Shown here piece by piece: positions 23,381-36,740 of a DNA stretch of 64,000 nt. Positions within the stretch are counted from its first letter, which is position 1. Each line of letters starts with the position of its first letter. Where the stretch lies: assembly GCA_002705055.1 (NCBI GenBank), contig PAHY01000022.1, positions 1 to 64,000 of the forward strand. Reading direction: 5' to 3'. The notes beneath the pieces are model-generated. The model was given only the letters and a program-made list of their open reading frames with translations. It had not been told where the DNA came from and ran no database searches. A program made the position numbers and the translations under genes. This DNA comes from Planctomycetota bacterium. Its GTDB lineage: Bacteria; Planctomycetota; UBA1135.

Positions 23381-23386
23381 TAGAAT
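23381..23386 (+). promoter_or_regulatory. TAGAAT -10 box for trmFO
   Basis: GCGGCTAGAATGG is followed by 10 bases and ATG at 23397. The earlier in-frame ATG at 23385 lies inside the box, so 23397 is the likely start. A weak TTGTAC lies 15 bases upstream, the closest thing to a -35 element I found. Confidence 0.5.
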
Positions 23387-23396
23387 GGCCGGTTCG

Positions 23397-24743
23397 ATGA
23401 GCCGCCCCATTCCGGTCATCGGCGCGGGGCTGGCCGGCTCCGAAGCTGCGCTGCAGCTGGCAGACGCCGGCTTCCCGGTCCGCCTCTACGAGATGCGCCC
23501 CGTTCAGCCGACGGCGGCGCATCAGACCCATCATTGCGCCGAGCTGGTCTGCTCGAACAGCCTCGGCTCCAAGCTGCCGGATCGCGCTGGCGGTTGCCTG
23601 CAGGCGGAGCTGCGCGCGCTCGACTGCAAGCTGCTGCCCGTGGCTGAAGCCTGCTCGGTGCCCGCCGGCCAGGCCCTGGCCGTCGACCGGGATCAGTTTG
23701 GCGCGCACGTCACTGCGGTGATCGAGGCGCACCCGCGGGTCGAGCTGGTCCGCGAAGAGGTGCAGGCCATCCCCCGCGAGGGCGTCTGCGTGGTCGCGAC
23801 CGGCCCGCTGACTTCGGAGGCCCTGGCGGCGGACATTCAGAGCCTTGCCGGACAGGATCAGCTCGCCTTCTTCGACGCCATCGCCCCGGTGGTGCACGGC
23901 GACAGCCTCGATCGTTCGATCGTGTTCGCGGCCTCTCGCTGGGGCAAGGGCACGGCGGACTATCTCAACGTGCCGCTGAACGAAGAAGAGTACGAGCGCT
24001 TCGTCGACGCGCTGCTCGCCGCGGAGAAGCACGAGCTGAAGGATTTCGAAGCCGCCGACCCGCGCGCCAAGCAGTTCTTTGAGCGCTGCCTGCCGATCGA
24101 AATCCTGGCGGCGCGTGGCCGGGACACCTTGCGCTACGGCCCCATGCGCCCGGTCGGTCTCGACGACCCGCGCACCGGGCGCTGGCCGCACGCCGTCCTG
24201 CAGCTGCGCACCGAGAACACCGAAGGCACGCTGTGGAACATGGTCGGCTTCCAGACCAACCTGCGCTACGGCGAACAGGAGCAGCTGTTCCGTTCCCTGC
24301 CAGGCCTGGCCGAGGCCGAATTCGCCCGGCTCGGCTCGATGCACCGCAACACCTTCCTGGATGCCCCGAAGCTGCTCACGCCGCAGCTGGAGTGGCGCGA
24401 ACGCCCCGGATTGAGCTTCGCCGGGCAGATCACCGGGATGGAAGGCTACCTGGGCAACATCGGCTCCGGGCTGGTGGCGGCGCGCAGCGCGATCGCCCGG
24501 CTCCAGCAGCGCGAGCCGCAGCCGCTCCCCCGCACCACCCTGCTCGGCGCGCTGACGCACCACGTCGCCGAGTCCCCCGCCGAACCCTTCCAGCCGATGA
24601 AGGCGGAGTTCGGCCTATTGCCGCCGCTGCCCGGCCGCGTGCGCAAGAAAGAGCGCAAAGCTGCCTACGCGGCCCGCAGCGCGGCGGACCTCGCCGCTCA
24701 TCTGCGGCATAATGGGGCTCCCGCGGCCCCGGCCCACCCCTAA
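23397..24743 (+). CDS. trmFO: Folate-dependent tRNA (uracil-54-C5)-methyltransferase TrmFO
   Basis: TrmFO makes 5-methyluridine at position 54 of tRNA using methylene-tetrahydrofolate and FADH2. The 448-residue protein begins with a GAGLAGSEAA dinucleotide-binding loop and carries family marks: ELVCSNSLGSK, the FAD/folate-binding VPAGQALAVDRD, and the C-terminal GYLGNIGSGLVAA. The alternative S-adenosylmethionine enzyme TrmA is not present here. Start at ATG 23397 (MSRPIPVIGAG). The rocA-like gene follows after 6 bases but has its own Shine-Dalgarno sequence. Confidence 0.95.
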   Translation: MSRPIPVIGAGLAGSEAALQLADAGFPVRLYEMRPVQPTAAHQTHHCAELVCSNSLGSKLPDRAGGCLQAELRALDCKLLPVAEACSVPAGQALAVDRDQFGAHVTAVIEAHPRVELVREEVQAIPREGVCVVATGPLTSEALAADIQSLAGQDQLAFFDAIAPVVHGDSLDRSIVFAASRWGKGTADYLNVPLNEEEYERFVDALLAAEKHELKDFEAADPRAKQFFERCLPIEILAARGRDTLRYGPMRPVGLDDPRTGRWPHAVLQLRTENTEGTLWNMVGFQTNLRYGEQEQLFRSLPGLAEAEFARLGSMHRNTFLDAPKLLTPQLEWRERPGLSFAGQITGMEGYLGNIGSGLVAARSAIARLQQREPQPLPRTTLLGALTHHVAESPAEPFQPMKAEFGLLPPLPGRVRKKERKAAYAARSAADLAAHLRHNGAPAAPAHP

Positions 24744-24749
24744 AGGAAG

Positions 24750-26321
24750 ATGCAAACCACGTCTGAAATCACTCCCTTCGTCAACGAGCCCTTCACCGAC
24801 TTCTCCGTCGAGGAGAACGCGGCCGCTTTCCGCGCGGCGCTGGAGAAGGTCGAGGCTTCGTTGCCCGTCGTCGTCCGTCTGCACATCGACGGCGAAGACT
24901 GCGACGGCGGCGCCGGCACCTTCGAGTCGATCGACCCCTCGCTGACCAGCCGGGTCGTCGCCAACTCGGCCAAGGGCAACAAGGACGACGCGCTGCGCGC
25001 CATCGCCGGCGCCCATAAGGCCTTCGGCGAGTGGTCCCGCCGCCCGGCCGCCGAGCGCGCCGAGTACCTGTTCAAGGCCGCGCGCATCATGCGCCTGCGC
25101 AAGCACGAGTTCTCGGCCATGATGGTCTACGAAGTCGGCAAGTCCTGGGCAGAGGCCGACGGCGACACCGCCGAAGCCATCGACTTCCTCGAGTTCTACG
25201 CGCGCGAAGCGCTGCGCTGGGAGCGTGAGCAGCCGCTCACCCGCGTCCCGGGCGAGGACAACGAGCTGCACTACATCCCGCTGGGTGTAGGCGCGGCCAT
25301 CCCGCCGTGGAACTTCCCGCTCGCCATCATGGTGGGCGTCTCGATGGCCCCGATCGCCGCGGGCAACTGCATGGTGCTGAAGCCGGCCTCGGACAGCCCG
25401 GGCATCGCTTCGATGTTCATTGATCTGATGAAGGAAGTCGGCCTCCCGGCCGGCGTGCTGCAGTTCGTGCCGGGCGGCGGCTCGGAGGTCGGCAACCTGC
25501 TGGTCGAGCACCCGCAGATCCGCTTCATCAACTTCACCGGCTCGATGGAAGTTGGCAAAGGCATCTACGAGAAGGCCGGCAAGACGGGCGAAGGCCAGAT
25601 CTGGCTGAAGCGCGTCATCGCCGAGATGGGCGGCAAGGACTTCATGTTCATCGACGAGGACGCGGACGTCGATAAGGCGGTGCAGCACAGCTACGCCGCG
25701 GCCTTCGGCTTCCAGGGCCAGAAGTGCTCGGCGCTGTCGCGCCTGATCCTGCACGAGTCGATCCACGACGAGTTCATGGACAAGTTCCTGCCGCTGGTCG
25801 AGGCCACCACCATCGGCCACCCCAGCGAGCAGAAGAACTTCCTCGCCGCGATGATCAATGAGTCGGCGATGAACGATGCCATCAAGGGCATCGAAGAGGC
25901 CAAGAAGGCAGGCAACAGCCTGGTCGCCGGCGGCGAACGGGCCAGCGAAGACGGCTGGTATCTGCAGCCGACCGTGTTCACCGGCGTCGGTCGCAACGAT
26001 TACATCTTCCAGACCGAGCTCTTCGCTCCGGTCGTCGCCGTCCACAAGGTGGGCAGCTTCGAGGAAGGCATCGAGGCGGCGAACGACACCATCTTCGGCC
26101 TGACCGGCTCTTACTTCGGCAAAGACGAAGAGAAGATCGAGCGCGCCAAGCGCGAGCTGCACTGCGGCAACCTCTACCTCAACCGCAAGTGCACCGGTGC
26201 GCTGGTCGGCGTCCACCCCTTCGGTGGCTTCAACATGTCGGGCACCGACAGCAAGGCCGGCGGGCGGGACTACCTCGGTCTCTTCCTGCAGGCCAAGTCG
26301 ATTACGCGGGCGACCAAGTAG
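24750..26321 (+). CDS. rocA: L-glutamate gamma-semialdehyde (1-pyrroline-5-carboxylate) dehydrogenase
   Basis: A 523-residue NAD(P)+-dependent aldehyde dehydrogenase of the RocA/PruA type, oxidising glutamate semialdehyde from proline or arginine breakdown to glutamate. Typical motifs are present: PWNFPLAI, FTGSMEVGK (cofactor loop), EMGGKDFMFIDEDAD with the catalytic Glu, and GQKCSALSR with the nucleophilic Cys. The length matches the stand-alone enzyme; no proline dehydrogenase gene is nearby. A clear Shine-Dalgarno stretch (aaaggaag) precedes the ATG, in contrast to most genes here. The next gene starts 8 bases after its stop. Confidence 0.93.
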   Translation: MQTTSEITPFVNEPFTDFSVEENAAAFRAALEKVEASLPVVVRLHIDGEDCDGGAGTFESIDPSLTSRVVANSAKGNKDDALRAIAGAHKAFGEWSRRPAAERAEYLFKAARIMRLRKHEFSAMMVYEVGKSWAEADGDTAEAIDFLEFYAREALRWEREQPLTRVPGEDNELHYIPLGVGAAIPPWNFPLAIMVGVSMAPIAAGNCMVLKPASDSPGIASMFIDLMKEVGLPAGVLQFVPGGGSEVGNLLVEHPQIRFINFTGSMEVGKGIYEKAGKTGEGQIWLKRVIAEMGGKDFMFIDEDADVDKAVQHSYAAAFGFQGQKCSALSRLILHESIHDEFMDKFLPLVEATTIGHPSEQKNFLAAMINESAMNDAIKGIEEAKKAGNSLVAGGERASEDGWYLQPTVFTGVGRNDYIFQTELFAPVVAVHKVGSFEEGIEAANDTIFGLTGSYFGKDEEKIERAKRELHCGNLYLNRKCTGALVGVHPFGGFNMSGTDSKAGGRDYLGLFLQAKSITRATK

Positions 26322-26329
26322 TCCTCTGC

Positions 26330-27817
26330 ATGAGCGGCGAACGACTCGATCGCCGGAACTTCTTCCGCCACGGTTTGCGCTCCCTCGCGCGGACCGTGGC
26401 GGATTCCGTTTCGTCGGACACGTCGCCTGCCGGGGCTTCCGCGGCTGCCACCGACGGCCGCCCCTTCCGCCGCCTGCGCCCTCCGGGCGCGCTTCTGGAA
26501 CCCGCGTTTCTGGAAGCCTGCACCCGTTGTGACGCCTGCTTCGACGCCTGCCCGGTCGACGCGATCGTGCCGGTCCCCGAGGGCCACCTGGATGCCGGCA
26601 CCCCGCGGATTCTCGCCGCCGAAACGGCCTGCACCGTCTGCTCGAGCCTGGCCTGCACGCAGGTCTGCGAGCCGGGCGCGCTGCTGCCGCTGCAGTCTCC
26701 CCAGGAGATCGAGATGGGGCTCGCGCGGGTCGATCCGCAGCACTGCGTGACCCACCACGGGCAGGCCTGCGACGCCTGCGTCACGATCTGTCCCACGCAG
26801 CCGCCCGCCCTCGGCCTAGTCGACGGTCACCCGAGCGTGCAGGCCTCGCTGTGCATCGGCTGCGGGCTCTGTGAGCAGCTCTGCCCGGTCTATCCGAAGG
26901 CGATTCAGGTCGAGGAGCCGGCGCGCGAGGCGGCGCTCGCGGCGGCGACCCGAGCCAAGCTGGAATCCCAGGCCTCGCGCGACGATGCTGGAAGGGTGGA
27001 GTCCGCCCCGCAGCCCTCGGAGGAGAAACGGCGCACCCGGCGCCGGGTGGAACCGATCGCGGAAACGGTCGACGAAGCCAAGCTGCCGCCTTCGACGGTG
27101 CCGCGCCCGCTGGCCGCATTCCTGCTCGTCGCCGGCCCGCTGTTCGCGCTGCTGGGCGTCTTCGGTTGGCTGATGCTGATCATGGGCGCGCCGGTGGCTC
27201 AGCCGCTCGAGCTGAAGCTCGGCGCGCTGCTCGCGGACCTCGCCCTCTGCCTGCTGTTCATCGTGCCGCACTCGCTGTTCGCGCGCGGACTCGGGCGCCG
27301 CTGGCTGAACATTCCCTTCGGCCCCTGCGGGGAACGGCCGCTGTACGTCTTCGTCGCCGGCACGACCCTGACCCTGCTGGCCTATCTCTGGCAGTCCTCC
27401 GGCCCGGTGCTGTGGGCCGCCGACGGGGTGGTCGCGCTGGTGCTGCGCGCGATTCAGTTTGGCGGCCTGGTGCTGGCCGCTTGGGCCGCCTTCGTGGTCG
27501 GCGGCGCGCAGATGCTAGGCCTGCCTCATCTGCGCGCGCTCTCGCTGGGCCGCAAGGAACCCTCGGCCGAGCTGGTCGCGCTACCGCCCTATTCACTGCT
27601 GCGTCAGCCCCTCAACCTGGGGATCCTGATCGCGCTTGCGTCGATGCCGCAGGTGACGCTGGATCGGCTGCTGCTTGCGATCGTGTTCGCGGTCTGGATT
27701 CTGTTTGTCGCCCCCTACGAAGAACGCGACGCCGAGATGCAGTTCGGGGAAGGCTATACGGTCTATCGCGACCGCACCCCGCGCTGGATGCCCCGGCGCA
27801 AGCCACCCACCGCATGA
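26330..27817 (+). CDS. Fusion: multi-cluster ferredoxin + MddA/NnrU-like membrane methyltransferase
   Basis: A 495-residue protein. Residues 1-25 contain an arginine pair (DRRNFFRHGL) but no clear hydrophobic signal core. Residues 60-195 hold four cysteine clusters of NapF/NapG/MauM style: CTRCDACFDACP (64-74), CTVCSSLACTQVC (101-113), C139 with CDACVTIC (147-154) and CIGCGLCEQLCP (175-186). A charged linker (about 195-255) leads to a membrane domain (about 260-485) with about six hydrophobic segments and the isoprenylcysteine-methyltransferase-like end RQPLNLGIL...YEERDAEMQFGEGYTVYRDRTPRWMP. That domain most resembles NnrU/MddA (methanethiol S-methyltransferase). Its ATGA overlaps the glcD start, and glcD overlaps glcE, so the three are translationally coupled. 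I do not know this domain combination. Confidence 0.85.
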   Translation: MSGERLDRRNFFRHGLRSLARTVADSVSSDTSPAGASAAATDGRPFRRLRPPGALLEPAFLEACTRCDACFDACPVDAIVPVPEGHLDAGTPRILAAETACTVCSSLACTQVCEPGALLPLQSPQEIEMGLARVDPQHCVTHHGQACDACVTICPTQPPALGLVDGHPSVQASLCIGCGLCEQLCPVYPKAIQVEEPAREAALAAATRAKLESQASRDDAGRVESAPQPSEEKRRTRRRVEPIAETVDEAKLPPSTVPRPLAAFLLVAGPLFALLGVFGWLMLIMGAPVAQPLELKLGALLADLALCLLFIVPHSLFARGLGRRWLNIPFGPCGERPLYVFVAGTTLTLLAYLWQSSGPVLWAADGVVALVLRAIQFGGLVLAAWAAFVVGGAQMLGLPHLRALSLGRKEPSAELVALPPYSLLRQPLNLGILIALASMPQVTLDRLLLAIVFAVWILFVAPYEERDAEMQFGEGYTVYRDRTPRWMPRRKPPTA

Positions 27818-29274
27818 GCGCGACCGGCCTTCCTCCGCTGCTACGCCAGCGCCTCGAAGCCGCGGTCGGAACCGAGCATGTCCTGACCGACGCCGGCAGC
27901 CTGCTGGCCTACGAGAGCGACGCGCTCACGCTGTTTCGCTGCCAGCCCGGCGCGGTGGTGCTGCCGGCCGATGCGCAGCAGGTGCAGGCCTGCGTGCAGG
28001 TGCTGCACGAGGCCGGCGTGCCCTTCGCAGCGCGCGGCGCGGGCACCGGGCTGTCCGGGGGGCTGCTGGTTCCTGCGGGCGGCGTCATCCTGGCCCTCAG
28101 CCGCATGAATCGCGTGCTCGAGATCGACGTCGAGCGCCGGGTAGCGCGCTGTGAACCCGGCGTGGTCAACGCGGTGCTGGGCCGCCACGCCGCCCAGCAC
28201 GGTTTGCGCTATGCGCCCGATCCGGCGAGCCAGACGGTGAGCACGCTGGGCGGAAACGCGGCCGAGAACGCGGGCGGACCGCAGTGTTTCCTGCACGGCA
28301 ACACCACTCAGCATGTGCTCGGGGTCGAGGTCGTGCTGGCCGACGGTCGCCGCGAGACCTGGGGGGGCCCCCACGCGCTCTCCGACGACCTGGATCTGCG
28401 CGGCTTCGCCTGCGGGTCCGAGGGCTCGGTGGCGGTTCTGACCGGCCTGATCTTGCGCCTGATCCCCCAGCCCGAAGCCGTCGGCACGCTGTTCGGCGCC
28501 TTCGCCGATGTGGCCACGGCCTGCCGCGCGGTGTCGGCCATCGTCGCGGCGGGGTTGCAGCCGCTTGCCCTGGAGGTCATGGATCAGCGCGCGATTCACG
28601 CGGTGGAAGACTCGGTGTACCGGGCCGGGTTGCCGCGCGAGGCGGGCGCGGTGCTGATCGTCGAGGTCGAAGGGACCGCGGCGCAGGTCGAGCGAGACGC
28701 CGCGGCCGTGGAAGCCCTGCTCGGCGAACACGCCCCGCTGCAAATTGAACGCGCGCAGGACGAGGCCCACCGGCTGCGCATCTGGAAGGGCCGCAAGGGC
28801 GCGGGCGGGGCCCTCGGGCGGCTCGCCCCCGATTCCCTGGTCATGGATGGCGTGGTGCCCCGCTCCCACCTCGCCGAGATCATGGAGTTCGTCGAAGAAG
28901 TCGCTGAGCAGACTGGACTGCCCGTCGCCAATCTGTTTCATGCTGGCGATGGAAACATCCACCCCCACTTCTCCTACGACGGGCGCGACCCAGATCAGTG
29001 CGCGCGGGTCGAGATCGCCAGCACCAAGATCCTGTTGAAGTGCCTGGAGCTGGACGGCTCGATCAGCGGCGAGCACGGCATCGGGCTGGAGAAGCAGCAC
29101 CTGATGGAGTCGCAGTTTGATGCCGAGGAGCTGGCGCTGATGCAGCAGCTGCGGCGCGTCTTCAATCCGGCGGATCTGCTCAATCCGGGCAAGGGCCTGC
29201 CGATGAAGCGCGGCTGCGCAGAGGCCTTCCATCGTCACCGTCACCTGACCTTGGACGAGGAGTTTCCCGCGTGA
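27814..29274 (+). CDS. glcD: FAD-linked oxidase, glycolate oxidase subunit GlcD type
   Basis: A 486-residue flavoprotein of the PCMH/FAD-oxidase type. The FAD-binding N-terminal half has PADAQQVQACV, ARGAGTGLSGG near 80, and TVSTLGGNAAENAGGP. The C-terminal half has FHAGDGNIHPHFSYD and SGEHGIGLEK, the active-site region of GlcD and bacterial D-lactate dehydrogenases. These enzymes oxidise 2-hydroxy acids (glycolate, D-lactate) and pass electrons to the quinone pool, in GlcDEF through the iron-sulfur subunit GlcF. No GlcF is encoded here; the ferredoxin fusion directly upstream may take its place. Start overlaps the upstream stop by 4 bases (ATGA). Confidence 0.92.
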   Translation: MSATGLPPLLRQRLEAAVGTEHVLTDAGSLLAYESDALTLFRCQPGAVVLPADAQQVQACVQVLHEAGVPFAARGAGTGLSGGLLVPAGGVILALSRMNRVLEIDVERRVARCEPGVVNAVLGRHAAQHGLRYAPDPASQTVSTLGGNAAENAGGPQCFLHGNTTQHVLGVEVVLADGRRETWGGPHALSDDLDLRGFACGSEGSVAVLTGLILRLIPQPEAVGTLFGAFADVATACRAVSAIVAAGLQPLALEVMDQRAIHAVEDSVYRAGLPREAGAVLIVEVEGTAAQVERDAAAVEALLGEHAPLQIERAQDEAHRLRIWKGRKGAGGALGRLAPDSLVMDGVVPRSHLAEIMEFVEEVAEQTGLPVANLFHAGDGNIHPHFSYDGRDPDQCARVEIASTKILLKCLELDGSISGEHGIGLEKQHLMESQFDAEELALMQQLRRVFNPADLLNPGKGLPMKRGCAEAFHRHRHLTLDEEFPA

Positions 29275-30209
29275 GCCCGCTCGGCACCCAGCAGCTGCTC
29301 GAAGCCCGCAGCGCCGAGGAGGCCCGGGAGATGGTCCAGGCCGCGGCCGAGGCCGGCACCGCGCTGCGGATCCGCGGCCACGCCAGCCGCGCCTGGCTGC
29401 ACCCGATCGACGCCCGCCCGGATTGCAGCGAGCTGCGCCTCGGCGGGCTGCGGGGCATGCGCTGGATCGATGCCGGCGACCGTACTTGCCGGGTCCAGGC
29501 CGGGACCTCGCTCGCCGAACTGGACGAGGCGCTGGCCGAGGCCGAGCTGATGCTGCCCTTCTGGGATGGCTCCGCGGGCAGCGTGGCGGGCGCCTTTCTC
29601 GGCGGCGGTCCCTCGCTGTTCGGCGCCGCCTGGGGCATGCCGCGTGACCAGGTGCTGGGCGCGCGCTGGATCCTGCCCGACGCGCGCGAGGTGCGCAGCG
29701 GCACCCGCGTCGTCAAGTCGGTCGCGGGCTACGATCTGACCCGGCTGCTGCTCGGCAGTCGTGGTCGCCTCGCCGCTTGCACCGAGCTCACGCTGCGGCT
29801 GCGTCCGAGGCCGCGGCAGTGGGCCTTCCTGCAGGCGCCCGAGACCACGCCGGAACAACGCCTCGGAAGCTGTCTGGCGGTGCGCCTGCCCGGAGGCTCA
29901 AGCGCAGGCCAGGATCTGGTGCTGTGGTCGGATCCGCTGGCGGTCCCGGCCGCGGTCCGGGCCGAGCCGCTGGCGCCGCAGGAGTTGGAGGACGCCGTCT
30001 TGGCCCGACTGCGCGAGGCTCTGCGTCCGCAACGCGGCTGGGAACCCAGCGGCGTCCACGCCGACGAAGACGCGTTGCTGCGAGACCTGAATCAGGGACT
30101 GTCGGTGTTCTCGGTCGCGCGTTCCACCGGCTGGCCGCGCGCGGACTCGAACTGGCTCCCCGCGGTGCAAGCGGTCTTCGCCGGCTCGGCGATTCCGTTC
30201 GGCGGTTGA
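29271..30209 (+). CDS. glcE: Glycolate oxidase FAD-binding subunit GlcE-like
   Basis: A 312-residue protein with a single FAD-binding PCMH domain and a reduced C-terminal part, as in GlcE. Family features are RIRGHASRAWLHP (where many have GGGTK), the GGG(P) turn near 110 and RVVKSVAGYDLTRLLLGSRG near 145. GlcE needs GlcD and GlcF for activity. Start is GTG at 29271, overlapping the glcD stop by 4 bases. It ends 13 bases before the stop of the convergent four-helix gene. Confidence 0.88.
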   Translation: MSPLGTQQLLEARSAEEAREMVQAAAEAGTALRIRGHASRAWLHPIDARPDCSELRLGGLRGMRWIDAGDRTCRVQAGTSLAELDEALAEAELMLPFWDGSAGSVAGAFLGGGPSLFGAAWGMPRDQVLGARWILPDAREVRSGTRVVKSVAGYDLTRLLLGSRGRLAACTELTLRLRPRPRQWAFLQAPETTPEQRLGSCLAVRLPGGSSAGQDLVLWSDPLAVPAAVRAEPLAPQELEDAVLARLREALRPQRGWEPSGVHADEDALLRDLNQGLSVFSVARSTGWPRADSNWLPAVQAVFAGSAIPFGG

Positions 30210-30222
30210 GCGCCCGGGCGGC

Positions 30223-30612
30223 TTAGGCCGCGTCCACCGGCGTCGCGCCTTCCAGCATCCACAGCGCCGCGCCCATCGCCGCCACCGTCACGACGACAAA
30301 GGACCAGGCCAGCAGCCGATGCCACTTGCGCACGCCCGGGCGCCGGATGAGCAGGAAACCCGAGACCGCGGCGCAGGGCAGCAGCCCGAGCGCGGTGAAG
30401 GCCAGGCTGAGGTGGATCCGCAGCCGCATGGCCGGGATCACGAAGCTCTCGCCGTAGATACGGGCCTGCACGATCGCAAAGGCCAGCGACAGCACCGTGG
30501 CCACCGCAAAGGGGTAATGAGCGCGGCGGCGGCCGCGCAGCCCCGTCCAAATCGTGCACCCGAGCAGCAGCACGGTCACGACGAGGGACACGACGAAGAT
30601 CGTTCCGTTCAC
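30223..30612 (-). CDS. Small four-helix membrane protein, function unknown
   Basis: A 129-residue protein with four predicted transmembrane segments (about residues 3-23, 32-52, 66-88, 102-122) and several histidines near the membrane faces (RAHYPF, RIHLSL, KWHRLL). The histidine spacing recalls small heme-binding or DUF420-like proteins, but I cannot place it firmly. Start at GTG 30612, 10 bases after a TAAGCT box. Divergent from the aminotransferase gene. Confidence 0.65.
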   Translation of the reverse strand: MNGTIFVVSLVVTVLLLGCTIWTGLRGRRRAHYPFAVATVLSLAFAIVQARIYGESFVIPAMRLRIHLSLAFTALGLLPCAAVSGFLLIRRPGVRKWHRLLAWSFVVVTVAAMGAALWMLEGATPVDAA

Positions 30613-30622
30613 GGCGGGCGAT

Positions 30623-30628
30623 AGCTTA
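30623..30628 (-). promoter_or_regulatory. TAAGCT -10 box for the four-helix protein gene
   Basis: On the minus strand TAAGCT is followed by 10 bases and GTG at 30612. It fits TAnnnT but is one of the weaker cases. Confidence 0.35.
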
Positions 30629-30640
30629 GCGTCGCGGGGG

Positions 30641-30646
30641 TACAAT
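30641..30646 (+). promoter_or_regulatory. TACAAT box 7 bases before the aminotransferase GTG
   Basis: GCGGGGGTACAAT is followed by cggggcc and GTG at 30654, so the mRNA would be leaderless. The preceding GCGGG is shared with the ettA box (GCGGGTACAAT). Confidence 0.6.
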
Positions 30647-30653
30647 CGGGGCC

Positions 30654-31985
30654 GTGGGCACCCTGATCGAAACGGGCATGATCGACCTCCCCGCCGACTT
30701 CGGCTCCGCCGAGACGCAGCGCGCGCTGACCTCCATGGCAAACGCGATGCAGGCCTCGTCGATCCTGACCATCGCCAATCAGATCCGCGAACGGAAAGCC
30801 GCCGGCGAGCCGGTGGCCAACCTCACGGTGGGCGATTTCGCCCCCGAGCTGTTCCCGATTCCGGCCGGGCTGCGCACGCGGCTGATCGAGGCCATCGAGC
30901 GCGGCGACACCAACTACCCCCCGCCGCAGGGAATGCCCGAGCTGCGCCGCGCCATTCAGGGCTACGTCGCGCGCACCCAGGGCATGAATCTGCCGCTCGA
31001 CGCCATCGCCGTGGTCGGCGGCGGCCGCCCCACGCTGTACGCGACCTACCGGCTGCTGGTCGAGCCCGGCGAGCTGGTGGTCTTCCCGGTGCCGTCGTGG
31101 AACAACCACAACTATCGCGACGTCTGCGGCGTGCGGGTGCACGAGGTGGCTTGCCGTGCCGAGGATGCGTTCCAGCCGACCGCGGCGCTGCTCAAGCCGC
31201 ACCTCTCGAAGGCGCGGCTGTTCGTGCTCAATACACCGCAGAACCCTTCGGGCGGCGTCATGCCGCGCGAAGAAGTCGCGGCCTTCGGCGAGCTGCTGGT
31301 CGAAGAAAACGCGCGCCGCGAACAGGCGGGCGAGAAGCCGCTCTATCTGCTCTTCGATCAGATCTACCAGGCCATCACCTTCGACGATCACGTCCATTAC
31401 TCGCCAGTGCAGCTGGTGCCCGAGTGCGCCCCTTACGTGGTGCACAGCGACGGTCTGTCGAAGAACTTCTGCGCCACCGGGCTGCGCTGCGGCTGGGTTT
31501 ACGGCCCGCCCGCCTTCGTCCGCAAGCTTTCGGCGCTGCTCACTCACGTCGGCGCCTGGGCCCCCAAGCCGGTGCAGGTCGCCGCGGCCGGCTGGCTCGA
31601 CGACGTCGAGGCGGTCGACGCCTGGTCGCAGGATCTCAACGCTCGCGCCCAGCACAGCCTGGAAGTGCTCGCGGACGGGATCTCAGCGCTGCAGGCCGAC
31701 GGTCTGCCGGTCGAGATGATCCGACCGCAGGGCGCGATCTACCTCTCGGTGCGCTTCGACCTGGTGGGCCGCAAGACTCCGGCGGGCGAGGTCCTCGCCG
31801 ACAATGAGGCGGTCCGCTCCTATCTGCTCGAAGAAGCCGGCTTCGCGATCGTGCCCTTTGCCGCCTTCGGCGCCGACGAAGCCGATGCAGAAGGCTGGTC
31901 GCGCGCCAGCGTCGGGGCCGCCAGCGCCGACGAGCTGCGCGAGCGGATGCCGCACCTGCGGCGGGCCATCGAGGCGCTGGCTTAG
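30654..31985 (+). CDS. Class I/II (aspartate-type) PLP aminotransferase
   Basis: A 443-residue fold-type I aminotransferase. Visible family elements are NYPPPQGMPELRRAI (near 93), GGGRPTLYATYRLL, NTPQNPSGG (Asn that contacts the PLP ring), LLFDQIYQ and the lysine loop HSDGLSKNFCATGLRCGW that binds PLP. It is about 40 residues longer than many AspC-type enzymes, partly at the N-terminus (residues 1-30). The amino acid specificity cannot be read from sequence. Start is GTG 30654, placed by a TACAAT box 7 bases upstream; an ATG at 30678 is possible. Converges on the next gene with a 4-base overlap. Confidence 0.9.
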   Translation: MGTLIETGMIDLPADFGSAETQRALTSMANAMQASSILTIANQIRERKAAGEPVANLTVGDFAPELFPIPAGLRTRLIEAIERGDTNYPPPQGMPELRRAIQGYVARTQGMNLPLDAIAVVGGGRPTLYATYRLLVEPGELVVFPVPSWNNHNYRDVCGVRVHEVACRAEDAFQPTAALLKPHLSKARLFVLNTPQNPSGGVMPREEVAAFGELLVEENARREQAGEKPLYLLFDQIYQAITFDDHVHYSPVQLVPECAPYVVHSDGLSKNFCATGLRCGWVYGPPAFVRKLSALLTHVGAWAPKPVQVAAAGWLDDVEAVDAWSQDLNARAQHSLEVLADGISALQADGLPVEMIRPQGAIYLSVRFDLVGRKTPAGEVLADNEAVRSYLLEEAGFAIVPFAAFGADEADAEGWSRASVGAASADELRERMPHLRRAIEALA

Positions 31986-35277: not shown

Positions 35278-35949
35278 ATGCTCCTCAAGATGATTCGCTG
35301 CGATGTGGCAGCGGAGCGCCGCGAGGCCTTCGCCACAGGACAGCAGGCGTGGTCCGCGGTCGCCGAGCGCCCCGGTTTTCTGGGTCAGGCCGGCGGCTGG
35401 ACGGAACGCCAGGCCTGCCTGGCCTCCTGGTGGACCGATTGGGCGGCCTACTCCGGCTTTCGCAAGGAGCTCCATGACCACCTGCTCGCGCGCAGCGGCC
35501 ACGGCCTGGCCTGCGATCGGATCGAGGTCTCGTACTGGGAGGCCGTCCCGGAAGAGCAGGTCGACCGCCGCGGCAGCTCGGATGTACGAGAGGCTCCGGG
35601 TCTGCTCCAGGTCGAGCTGCTCGAACTGGCTCCCGGCTGCCTGCCCGAGTTCCGCGAGTTCCTGACCTGGCGCTGGCACAGCGCGCTCGCCGGGTCCACC
35701 GGTCTGCACGAAGCCCGCCTCTGCCGGCACCGCAAGCGCCCGGGTCGTTACCTCATCTGGTCGCTCTGGGCGGCCGGCGCCCGTCCGACCAGCTTTGCCG
35801 GTCTGCTCCAGCCGGGCTATCGCATTCCGCAACGTCGGCTCCAGTTGCTGCGCAGCCACGAGGCGATGCGCATGCCGCTCGAGACCACGTGGTCCGTCCC
35901 TCAAGCCGAAGCTGGAGAGACCAGCTTCCTCGTCCCAGAAGAATCCTGA
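35278..35949 (+). CDS. DUF4937 (YdbC-like) protein
   Basis: A 223-residue protein. Residues 1-95 match the DUF4937 dimeric-barrel fold (MLLKMIRCDV..FLGQAGGWTERQACLASWWTDWAAY...HDHL). The second half (about 105-200) looks like a second, diverged alpha/beta-barrel copy with the pattern APGCLPEFREFLTW. The family belongs to the ABM/ferredoxin-like dimeric barrels that often handle small molecules; no activity is known. It is the first gene of a pair: its stop overlaps the ATG of the cysteine-repeat protein (TGATG). Confidence 0.8.
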   Translation: MLLKMIRCDVAAERREAFATGQQAWSAVAERPGFLGQAGGWTERQACLASWWTDWAAYSGFRKELHDHLLARSGHGLACDRIEVSYWEAVPEEQVDRRGSSDVREAPGLLQVELLELAPGCLPEFREFLTWRWHSALAGSTGLHEARLCRHRKRPGRYLIWSLWAAGARPTSFAGLLQPGYRIPQRRLQLLRSHEAMRMPLETTWSVPQAEAGETSFLVPEES

Positions 35950-36740
35950 TGCTCAGCACCCTCATCCTTGCCTTCAGCGCGCTGGCGCAGACGCCGGCCG
36001 CCCCCGCAGCTCCGGTTGCCCCGGTTCAAGAAGCTGCCCCCAGCTGGGAGGCGCAGACGATCTGCCCGGTGTCGGCAGAACCGCTCGACGGAGAGAAGAG
36101 TCACTTCGTCGACTTCGAAGGTCAGCGGATCTACGTCTGCTGCAAGAAGTGCGTGAAGAAGGCCGCCGCGGATCCCGAGCAGATGCTCTTCGTGCTCGCC
36201 CAGGCCGGGCAGGCCACAGAATCGACCAACACGATCTGCCCCGTCTCCGGCGAGAAGCTGGACGGACGTGACCACGTGGTCTGGGTCGGCAACAAGAGCT
36301 TTGCGGTCTGCTGCAAGAAGTGCCACCGCAAGGCCAGCGGCACTCCCGCGGTGTACCTCGACAAGCTCGAGGGTCGGACCAAGCAGACGCTCTGCCCGAT
36401 CTCGGGCGAGAAGGTCGACCCGAAGGTCGCCACCGAGGTGAACGGCTTCCAGGTCAAAGCCTGCTGCGAGAAGTGCGTGGCCAAGATTGAAGCGGATCCG
36501 AACGCTGCCCTGGCCAAGCTGGCCAGCCAGAAAGTCGTGCTCGAGCCGATCGCCAAGACCTGCACGCTGAACCCGAAGGAGAAACGGGATGCCCAGGTCT
36601 TCGTGACCGTCGGCGCGCAGCGTCACTACTTCTGCTGCAATAAGTGCCGCGGCAAGTGGCTCGCCAAGCGGGCCGCGCCCAAGAAGACCGAAGCCGCGAC
36701 CGCCGGCGCGCTCCAGTTCCTCGGCGGCGACGGCCGCTAG
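35949..36740 (+). CDS. Exported protein with four TRASH/YHS-like cysteine repeats
   Basis: A 263-residue protein with a signal peptide and Ala/Pro-rich linker (1-33), then four tandem repeats of about 50 residues. Each has one Cys near its start (C39, C97, C149, C205; TICPVSGEKLDG-like) and a CCxKC knuckle 25 residues on (64-68, 121-125, 172-176, 229-233). The pattern is that of TRASH/YHS-type metal-binding fingers. Such modules bind copper, mercury or zinc in metal sensors and metal-handling proteins; here they are exported and not joined to another domain. Repeat 4 is the most diverged (TCTLNP in place of ICPVSG). Metal storage, trafficking or delivery is possible (inference). Coupled to the DUF4937 gene by overlap. 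Confidence 0.82.
   Translation: MLSTLILAFSALAQTPAAPAAPVAPVQEAAPSWEAQTICPVSAEPLDGEKSHFVDFEGQRIYVCCKKCVKKAAADPEQMLFVLAQAGQATESTNTICPVSGEKLDGRDHVVWVGNKSFAVCCKKCHRKASGTPAVYLDKLEGRTKQTLCPISGEKVDPKVATEVNGFQVKACCEKCVAKIEADPNAALAKLASQKVVLEPIAKTCTLNPKEKRDAQVFVTVGAQRHYFCCNKCRGKWLAKRAAPKKTEAATAGALQFLGGDGR

What the first reader, a model, noticed from the sequence alone, without database searches (positions are those of the whole stretch)
26330..30209. Ferredoxin fused to an MddA/NnrU-like membrane methyltransferase, coupled to glcD and glcE
One 495-residue protein joins four cysteine clusters of ferredoxin type with a six-helix membrane domain ending in the isoprenylcysteine-methyltransferase-like motif (RQPLNLG...YEERD). 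MddA proteins of this fold methylate methanethiol to dimethyl sulfide. The gene overlaps glcD (ATGA), which overlaps glcE (GTGA), so three products are coupled. GlcDE normally need the iron-sulfur subunit GlcF, which is absent. The ferredoxin half may replace GlcF and pass electrons from a 2-hydroxy acid to the membrane, where the second half would be either an anchor/quinone site or a methyltransferase. I do not know this combination from described systems.
Basis: partly seen in the sequence, partly recalled or inferred. Interest (0 to 1): 0.7.

Follow-up and report, generated by a model that had tools for sequence, protein, structure and literature searches.

The report
Ferredoxin–membrane protein fusion beside glcDE
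In one family of uncultured Planctomycetota, the genes for a glycolate-oxidase-type enzyme always travel with a membrane protein of the SAM-methyltransferase type and sometimes with an iron-sulfur protein; here the two extra proteins are fused into one, which suggests that they work together at the membrane, but the job they do is not known.

Summary
26330-27817 is one intact 495-aa gene: a NapG/MauM-type ferredoxin (16 cluster cysteines) joined to a membrane domain of the MddA/ICMT superfamily, coupled to glcD (ATGA), which is coupled to glcE (GTGA).

It is not an artefact. In the same Planctomycetota family four genomes carry the fusion, six carry the halves as abutting genes, and twelve carry the membrane gene without the ferredoxin. 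All keep the order P5CDH-[Fd]-Mem-glcD-glcE. The fused state needs two changes on the tree.

A GlcF-type gene lies on another contig, related to the GlcF of a canonical glcDEF operon in a relative, and relatives with an unfused ferredoxin keep glcF in the operon. Still, all four fused genomes lack operonic glcF (two events, too few to test), and in one no GlcF was found.

The membrane half is not MddA: 86 bits against a 270 cutoff, while control homologs score 307-377. It keeps residues shared with MddA around the SAM motif but loses MddA-specific ones.

Best reading: a membrane-anchored accessory and electron-transfer module of a lineage-specific GlcDE(F) dehydrogenase, with a membrane domain that probably still binds SAM. 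Function unproven.

The parts
26330..27817 (+). Fused gene, 495 aa: NapG-type ferredoxin + MddA/ICMT-superfamily membrane domain
26330..26944 (+). Ferredoxin half (residues 1-205); twin-arginine-like DRRNFF start but no hydrophobic export segment (best 19-residue Kyte-Doolittle mean near the N-terminus 0.25), so probably cytoplasmic
26519..26551 (+). Cluster motif 1, C64-x2-C67-x2-C70-x3-C74
26630..26668 (+). Cluster motif 2, C101/C104/C109/C113
26744..26791 (+). Cluster motif 3, C139/C147/C150/C154
26852..26884 (+). Cluster motif 4, C175-x2-C178-x2-C181-x3-C185
27107..27814 (+). Membrane half (residues 260-495), helices at about 260-285, 297-317, 335-352, 366-405, 421-437, 444-472 in the model
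27602..27622 (+). RQPLNLG (425-431), the RHPxxxG motif of the superfamily; R425, P427 and G431 invariant in relatives
27719..27730 (+). EERD (464-467); E465, R466 and D467 invariant in relatives
27814..29274 (+). glcD-like FAD dehydrogenase subunit, 486 aa; overlaps the fused gene by ATGA
29271..30209 (+). glcE-like subunit, 312 aa; overlaps glcD by GTGA
24750..26321 (+). P5C dehydrogenase (L-glutamate gamma-semialdehyde dehydrogenase), conserved upstream neighbour, 8 bases before the fused gene; membership in the functional unit not shown
23385..24743 (+). trmFO-like gene, conserved upstream neighbour (named from its sequence, no family search run); membership in the functional unit not shown

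Best explanation
A lineage-specific accessory module of a GlcDE(F)-type 2-hydroxy-acid dehydrogenase, most likely acting on glycolate. The membrane half anchors the module, and through it the dehydrogenase, at the cytoplasmic face of the membrane. The NapG-type ferredoxin half offers a chain of four [4Fe-4S] clusters through which electrons from GlcDE, with or without GlcF, reach a membrane acceptor such as the quinone pool. The membrane half has also kept the SAM-binding signature of the MddA/ICMT superfamily, so it probably still binds SAM and may methylate a substrate other than methanethiol. Shown: intact fusion, domain identities, overlapping genes, conserved gene order, two changes to the fused state on the tree, a GlcF-type gene elsewhere in the genome, conserved motifs. 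Inferred: physical complex, direction of electron flow, quinone as acceptor, glycolate as substrate, SAM binding.
For: The order P5CDH-[Fd]-Mem-glcD-glcE is kept in the 21 family genomes examined (15 genera), with trmFO upstream wherever the contig reaches. The ferredoxin and membrane genes are always adjacent where both occur at the locus, and overlap in five of the six unfused cases. The fused state needs two changes on the tree, a Rosetta-stone type of argument for interaction. The ferredoxin is of the electron-transfer NapG/MauM kind and lacks an export segment, so it should lie on the same side as GlcDE; loops 318-334 and 391-420 and the C-terminus are basic, consistent with both ends inside. 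GlcD's nearest solved relatives are a glycolate oxidase (2.7e-73) and LctD of a ferredoxin-linked lactate dehydrogenase (2e-61). In G008 the unlinked glcF is followed on the same strand by a class-V aminotransferase whose best profile is a glyoxylate aminotransferase (211 bits, below its 650 cutoff), which fits glycolate to glyoxylate. SAM-motif residues shared with MddA are almost fully conserved.
Against: Twelve of 22 genomes have the membrane gene without any ferredoxin at the locus, so the ferredoxin is dispensable. No complex could be modelled; the fusion model is poor (pLDDT 60) and the membrane-only model found no fold match. A mere anchor would not need the conserved SAM-motif residues. 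There is no direct evidence for a quinone site. P5CDH and TrmFO have no obvious link to glycolate, so the synteny may partly reflect a slowly shuffled region.
Confidence: 0.45

Rival explanations
1. The membrane half is primarily an active SAM-dependent methyltransferase with a new, probably lipophilic substrate. GlcDE(F) supplies or removes a related metabolite, and the ferredoxin supplies reductant or a docking surface.
For: Y421, R425, P427, G431, E465, R466, D467, G473, Y476, Y479 and P488 are kept in both this group and MddA. The profile matches ICMT structures through this region (4a2n, E 5e-4). The membrane gene is the most constant accessory, more constant than the ferredoxin.
Against: The H of RHP is Q in 18 of 21, the first E of EE is lost in one genome, and MddA's H142, W187 and Y206 are replaced. 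The related pocket binds NADP in steroid 5-alpha-reductase (PMC7591894), so the fold alone does not prove SAM use. No substrate can be named.
Confidence: 0.3
2. One reading: the ferredoxin half has replaced GlcF as the iron-sulfur partner of GlcDE.
For: All four fused genomes lack operonic glcF, while all 17 unfused genomes whose contigs reach far enough have it. In G005 no GlcF was found, only a 622-aa CCG protein encoded next to an etfB-like gene.
Against: The window genome encodes a GlcF-type protein whose 46%-identical relative in G006 lies in a complete canonical glcDEF operon. In G000, G008 and G011 this GlcF has no close second GlcD in the genome, so it probably serves the window-type GlcDE. 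Six genomes have ferredoxin and operonic GlcF together. Only two independent events, sign test p 0.5. The fused genomes are only 84-89% complete.
Confidence: 0.15
3. The membrane half is a methanethiol S-methyltransferase (MddA) making dimethyl sulfide.
For: MddA is the best NCBIfam match of the window protein and matches all 21 members of the group.
Against: 86 bits against a 270-bit cutoff; five homologs from other Planctomycetota score 307-377. The HFDLFGLRQ, FWATP and GH stretches of MddA are not kept.
Confidence: 0.04
4. Chance neighbours or an assembly join without common function.
For: P5CDH and TrmFO look unrelated to GlcDE.
Against: Same order in 21 genomes of 15 genera; single-frame fusions in four separately assembled genomes.
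Confidence: 0.03

Closest known systems
GlcDEF glycolate oxidase (E. coli type)
   Same: GlcD and GlcE subunits and a GlcF-type protein in the genome; relatives keep glcD-glcE-glcF in order
   Different: Extra membrane protein in every relative and an optional ferredoxin; in the window genome glcF is unlinked and of the canonical rather than the operonic type
MddA methanethiol S-methyltransferase
   Same: Homologous over about 190 residues, with shared SAM-motif residues
   Different: 86 bits against a 270 cutoff; MddA-specific residues replaced; encoded with or fused to a ferredoxin, next to glcDE
ICMT, isoprenylcysteine carboxyl methyltransferase (PDB 4a2n, 5vg9, 5v7p)
   Same: C-terminal RxP...EE region aligns (E 5e-4 to 6e-3)
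   Different: Only the C-terminal part matches; no prenylated-protein context
NapG/MauM ferredoxins
   Same: Four cluster motifs and the RPPGA...GTP...MGLA framework
   Different: No export segment and no NapH or NapA next to it; the second NapG-like copies in G006 and G012, and the one in G030, have a hydrophobic N-terminus and sit with molybdopterin-oxidoreductase-like genes

Membership tests
MddA | Score above the NCBIfam equivalog cutoff (270 bits) | tested here: not met
   85.7 bits for the membrane half; controls 307-377
MddA | MddA-conserved residues outside the SAM motif (HFDLFGLRQ, FWATP, GH) | tested here: not met
MddA | SAM-dependent methanethiol methylation | not testable with these tools
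   needs an enzyme assay
ICMT/MddA superfamily | RxP...G and EE motifs in the C-terminal membrane region | tested here: met
   R425, P427, G431 and E465 invariant in 21 sequences; profile match to 4a2n
ICMT/MddA superfamily | Same fold by structure comparison | tested here: inconclusive
   model pLDDT 73.7 with parts of the C-terminus under 50; no Foldseek match at E below 0.001
NapG/MauM ferredoxin | Four 4Fe-4S motifs | tested here: met
   16 cysteines conserved in ten sequences
NapG/MauM ferredoxin | Score above the NCBIfam cutoffs | tested here: not met
   NapG 103 bits against 269; MauM/NapG 84 against 179; homologous but not a NapG equivalog
NapG (Nap system) | Tat-exported, encoded with NapH and NapA | tested here: not met
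   no hydrophobic segment after the RR motif; no such genes at the locus
GlcDEF | GlcD and GlcE subunits | tested here: met
   GlcD 5.5e-128, GlcE 4.8e-27, both below the equivalog cutoffs
GlcDEF | GlcF subunit present in the genome | tested here: met
   unlinked at G000:C43:34921-36234, GlcF profile 1.3e-67, 229 bits against cutoff 333
GlcDEF | Glycolate oxidation | not testable with these tools
   needs an assay

The most novel reading that the evidence does not exclude
In the fused lineages the ferredoxin-membrane protein has become the membrane electron-transfer subunit of GlcDE, relieving the need for operonic GlcF, and its membrane half uses a methyltransferase-type fold as a quinone-reducing or SAM-using site: a new kind of membrane-bound 2-hydroxy-acid dehydrogenase.
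Probability: 0.15. Interest if true: 0.75.

Novelty: new variant of a known kind. Interest (0 to 1): 0.45.

Why it matters
How GlcDEF-type dehydrogenases dock to the membrane and pass electrons on is, to my knowledge, poorly described. A bacterial family that always adds a membrane protein of methyltransferase type, and in some members has fused it to a polyferredoxin, gives a natural handle on that question and a possible new use of the MddA/ICMT fold. It also warns against reading such genes as DMS producers.

Tried and rejected
The structure route failed: membrane-only model pLDDT 73.7 with no PDB match, fusion model pLDDT 60; I give these models no weight beyond helix positions. Mem-like genes outside the family were checked in 17 loci and none had glcDE or the ferredoxin within about 1.5 kb. 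Literature searches for the combination found nothing relevant. The MddA/DMS reading was rejected on score and residues. An assembly artefact was rejected on single-frame fusions in four genomes. The correlation of fusion with loss of operonic glcF was kept as a lead, not as proof (two events).

Full report
OBSERVATION. The fused gene is real. The frame 26330-27817 is open for 495 codons, overlaps glcD (27814-29274) by ATGA, and glcD overlaps glcE (29271-30209) by GTGA. The first half matches NapG/MauM ferredoxins (NapG 1.7e-29, residues 7-207) and the second half matches MddA (1.4e-23, residues 298-487); the GlcD and GlcE profiles match at 5.5e-128 and 4.8e-27. All four of these matches are below the curated equivalog cutoffs.

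SURROUNDINGS AND RELATIVES. The window lies in G000 contig C24, a 3.85 Mb draft genome, 85% complete. A search of 60 relatives found the fusion as one frame in G005, G008 and G011; the two halves as neighbouring genes in G004, G006, G007, G012, G013 and G020; and the membrane gene without the ferredoxin in the others with the locus. Matching contigs in the named collection are Planctomycetota MAGs, among them UBA1135. All share P5CDH-[Fd]-Mem-glcD-glcE, with trmFO upstream wherever the contig reaches. In G007 a TAA sits at the junction of the two halves; in G004, G006, G012, G013 and G020 the two genes overlap.

EVOLUTION. On a tree of TrmFO, P5CDH, GlcD and Mem (22 genomes) the fused state needs two changes (the G000/G008/G011 group and G005), and the three states together need four. 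SH-aLRT support is 87 for the first group and 100 for that group plus G007. So fusion probably occurred twice, though one gain with losses is not strictly excluded. Repeated fusion of the same neighbours argues for a shared function.

WHERE IS GLCF? The CCG family search found one GlcF-type gene in the window genome, at C43:34921-36234, matching GlcF at 1.3e-67. In unfused relatives glcF follows glcE directly, with or without the ferredoxin. The four fused genomes lack it there: glcE is followed by a small opposite-strand membrane gene that lies after glcF in most relatives. The C43 GlcF forms a separate group with those of G008 and G011 and is 46% identical to a GlcF in G006 that lies in a second, complete glcDEF operon. 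G000, G008 and G011 have no close second GlcD. The simplest account is that operonic GlcF was lost and the canonical GlcF took over. In G005 I found no GlcF; it has a 622-aa CCG protein encoded next to an etfB-like gene.

FERREDOXIN HALF. Sixteen cysteines in four motifs are conserved in all ten sequences; the N-terminus has an RR motif but no hydrophobic stretch, so it is probably cytoplasmic. Other NapG-like copies in G006, G012 and G030 have a hydrophobic N-terminus and lie with molybdopterin-oxidoreductase-like, NapH-like and cytochrome-like genes (named from sequence, no family search).

MEMBRANE HALF. Orthologs score about 400 bits and occur only in this family among 392 genomes of the phylum; outside it only MddA-type paralogs at or below 123 bits appear. 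Five of those paralogs were scanned and pass the MddA cutoff (307-377 bits); the window's does not (86 bits). A joint alignment shows that Y421, R425, P427, G431, E464, E465, R466, D467, G473, Y476, Y479 and P488 are shared, while MddA's Q62, K72, H142, W187, H196 and Y206 are replaced (MddA numbering of L102). The PDB profile search finds ICMT through the same region. Hence SAM binding is likely and methanethiol as substrate unlikely. A caveat is that a related pocket binds NADP in steroid 5-alpha-reductase (PMC7591894).

MECHANISM. I commit to a membrane-anchored accessory and electron-transfer module for GlcDE(F), at 0.45. GlcD's nearest solved relatives are a glycolate oxidase and the LctD subunit of a ferredoxin-linked lactate dehydrogenase. 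In G008 the unlinked glcF is followed by a class-V aminotransferase whose best profile is a glyoxylate aminotransferase, below cutoff. That points weakly to glycolate.

VERDICT. A real, conserved and apparently undescribed arrangement, a new variant of the GlcDEF kind. The link between fusion and loss of operonic glcF is the most interesting loose end.

Noticed in passing
G000:C43:34921-36234 (L047:7922-9238, +): Orphan GlcF-type gene with no glcD or glcE beside it; its group differs from the operonic GlcF of relatives.
   Followed up: yes
L121:7707-11706 (G006 contig C1): A second, canonical glcD-glcE-glcF operon in a relative that also has the Mem-type operon.
   Followed up: yes
window 30223-30741 (-): Small membrane protein gene on the opposite strand after glcE, found after glcF in most relatives; no Pfam match above cutoff.
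   Followed up: partly
window 35889-36740 (+): Protein with repeated ICPVSGEKLDG...CCKKC-like motifs and weak TRASH-domain matches, probably metal-binding.
   Followed up: partly
L122:2624-5286 (G005 contig C31): 622-aa CCG/ferredoxin protein followed by an etfB-like gene, possibly an electron-transfer-flavoprotein:quinone reductase.
   Followed up: partly
L115:7638-8264 and L117:7746-8348: Ferredoxins with a similar RRxFFRxGL start but without the membrane gene or glcDE beside them, in another family of the order.
   Followed up: no
L119 and L120: Nap-like operons with a NapG-like, NapH-like and bc1-like gene set in G012 and G006.
   Followed up: partly
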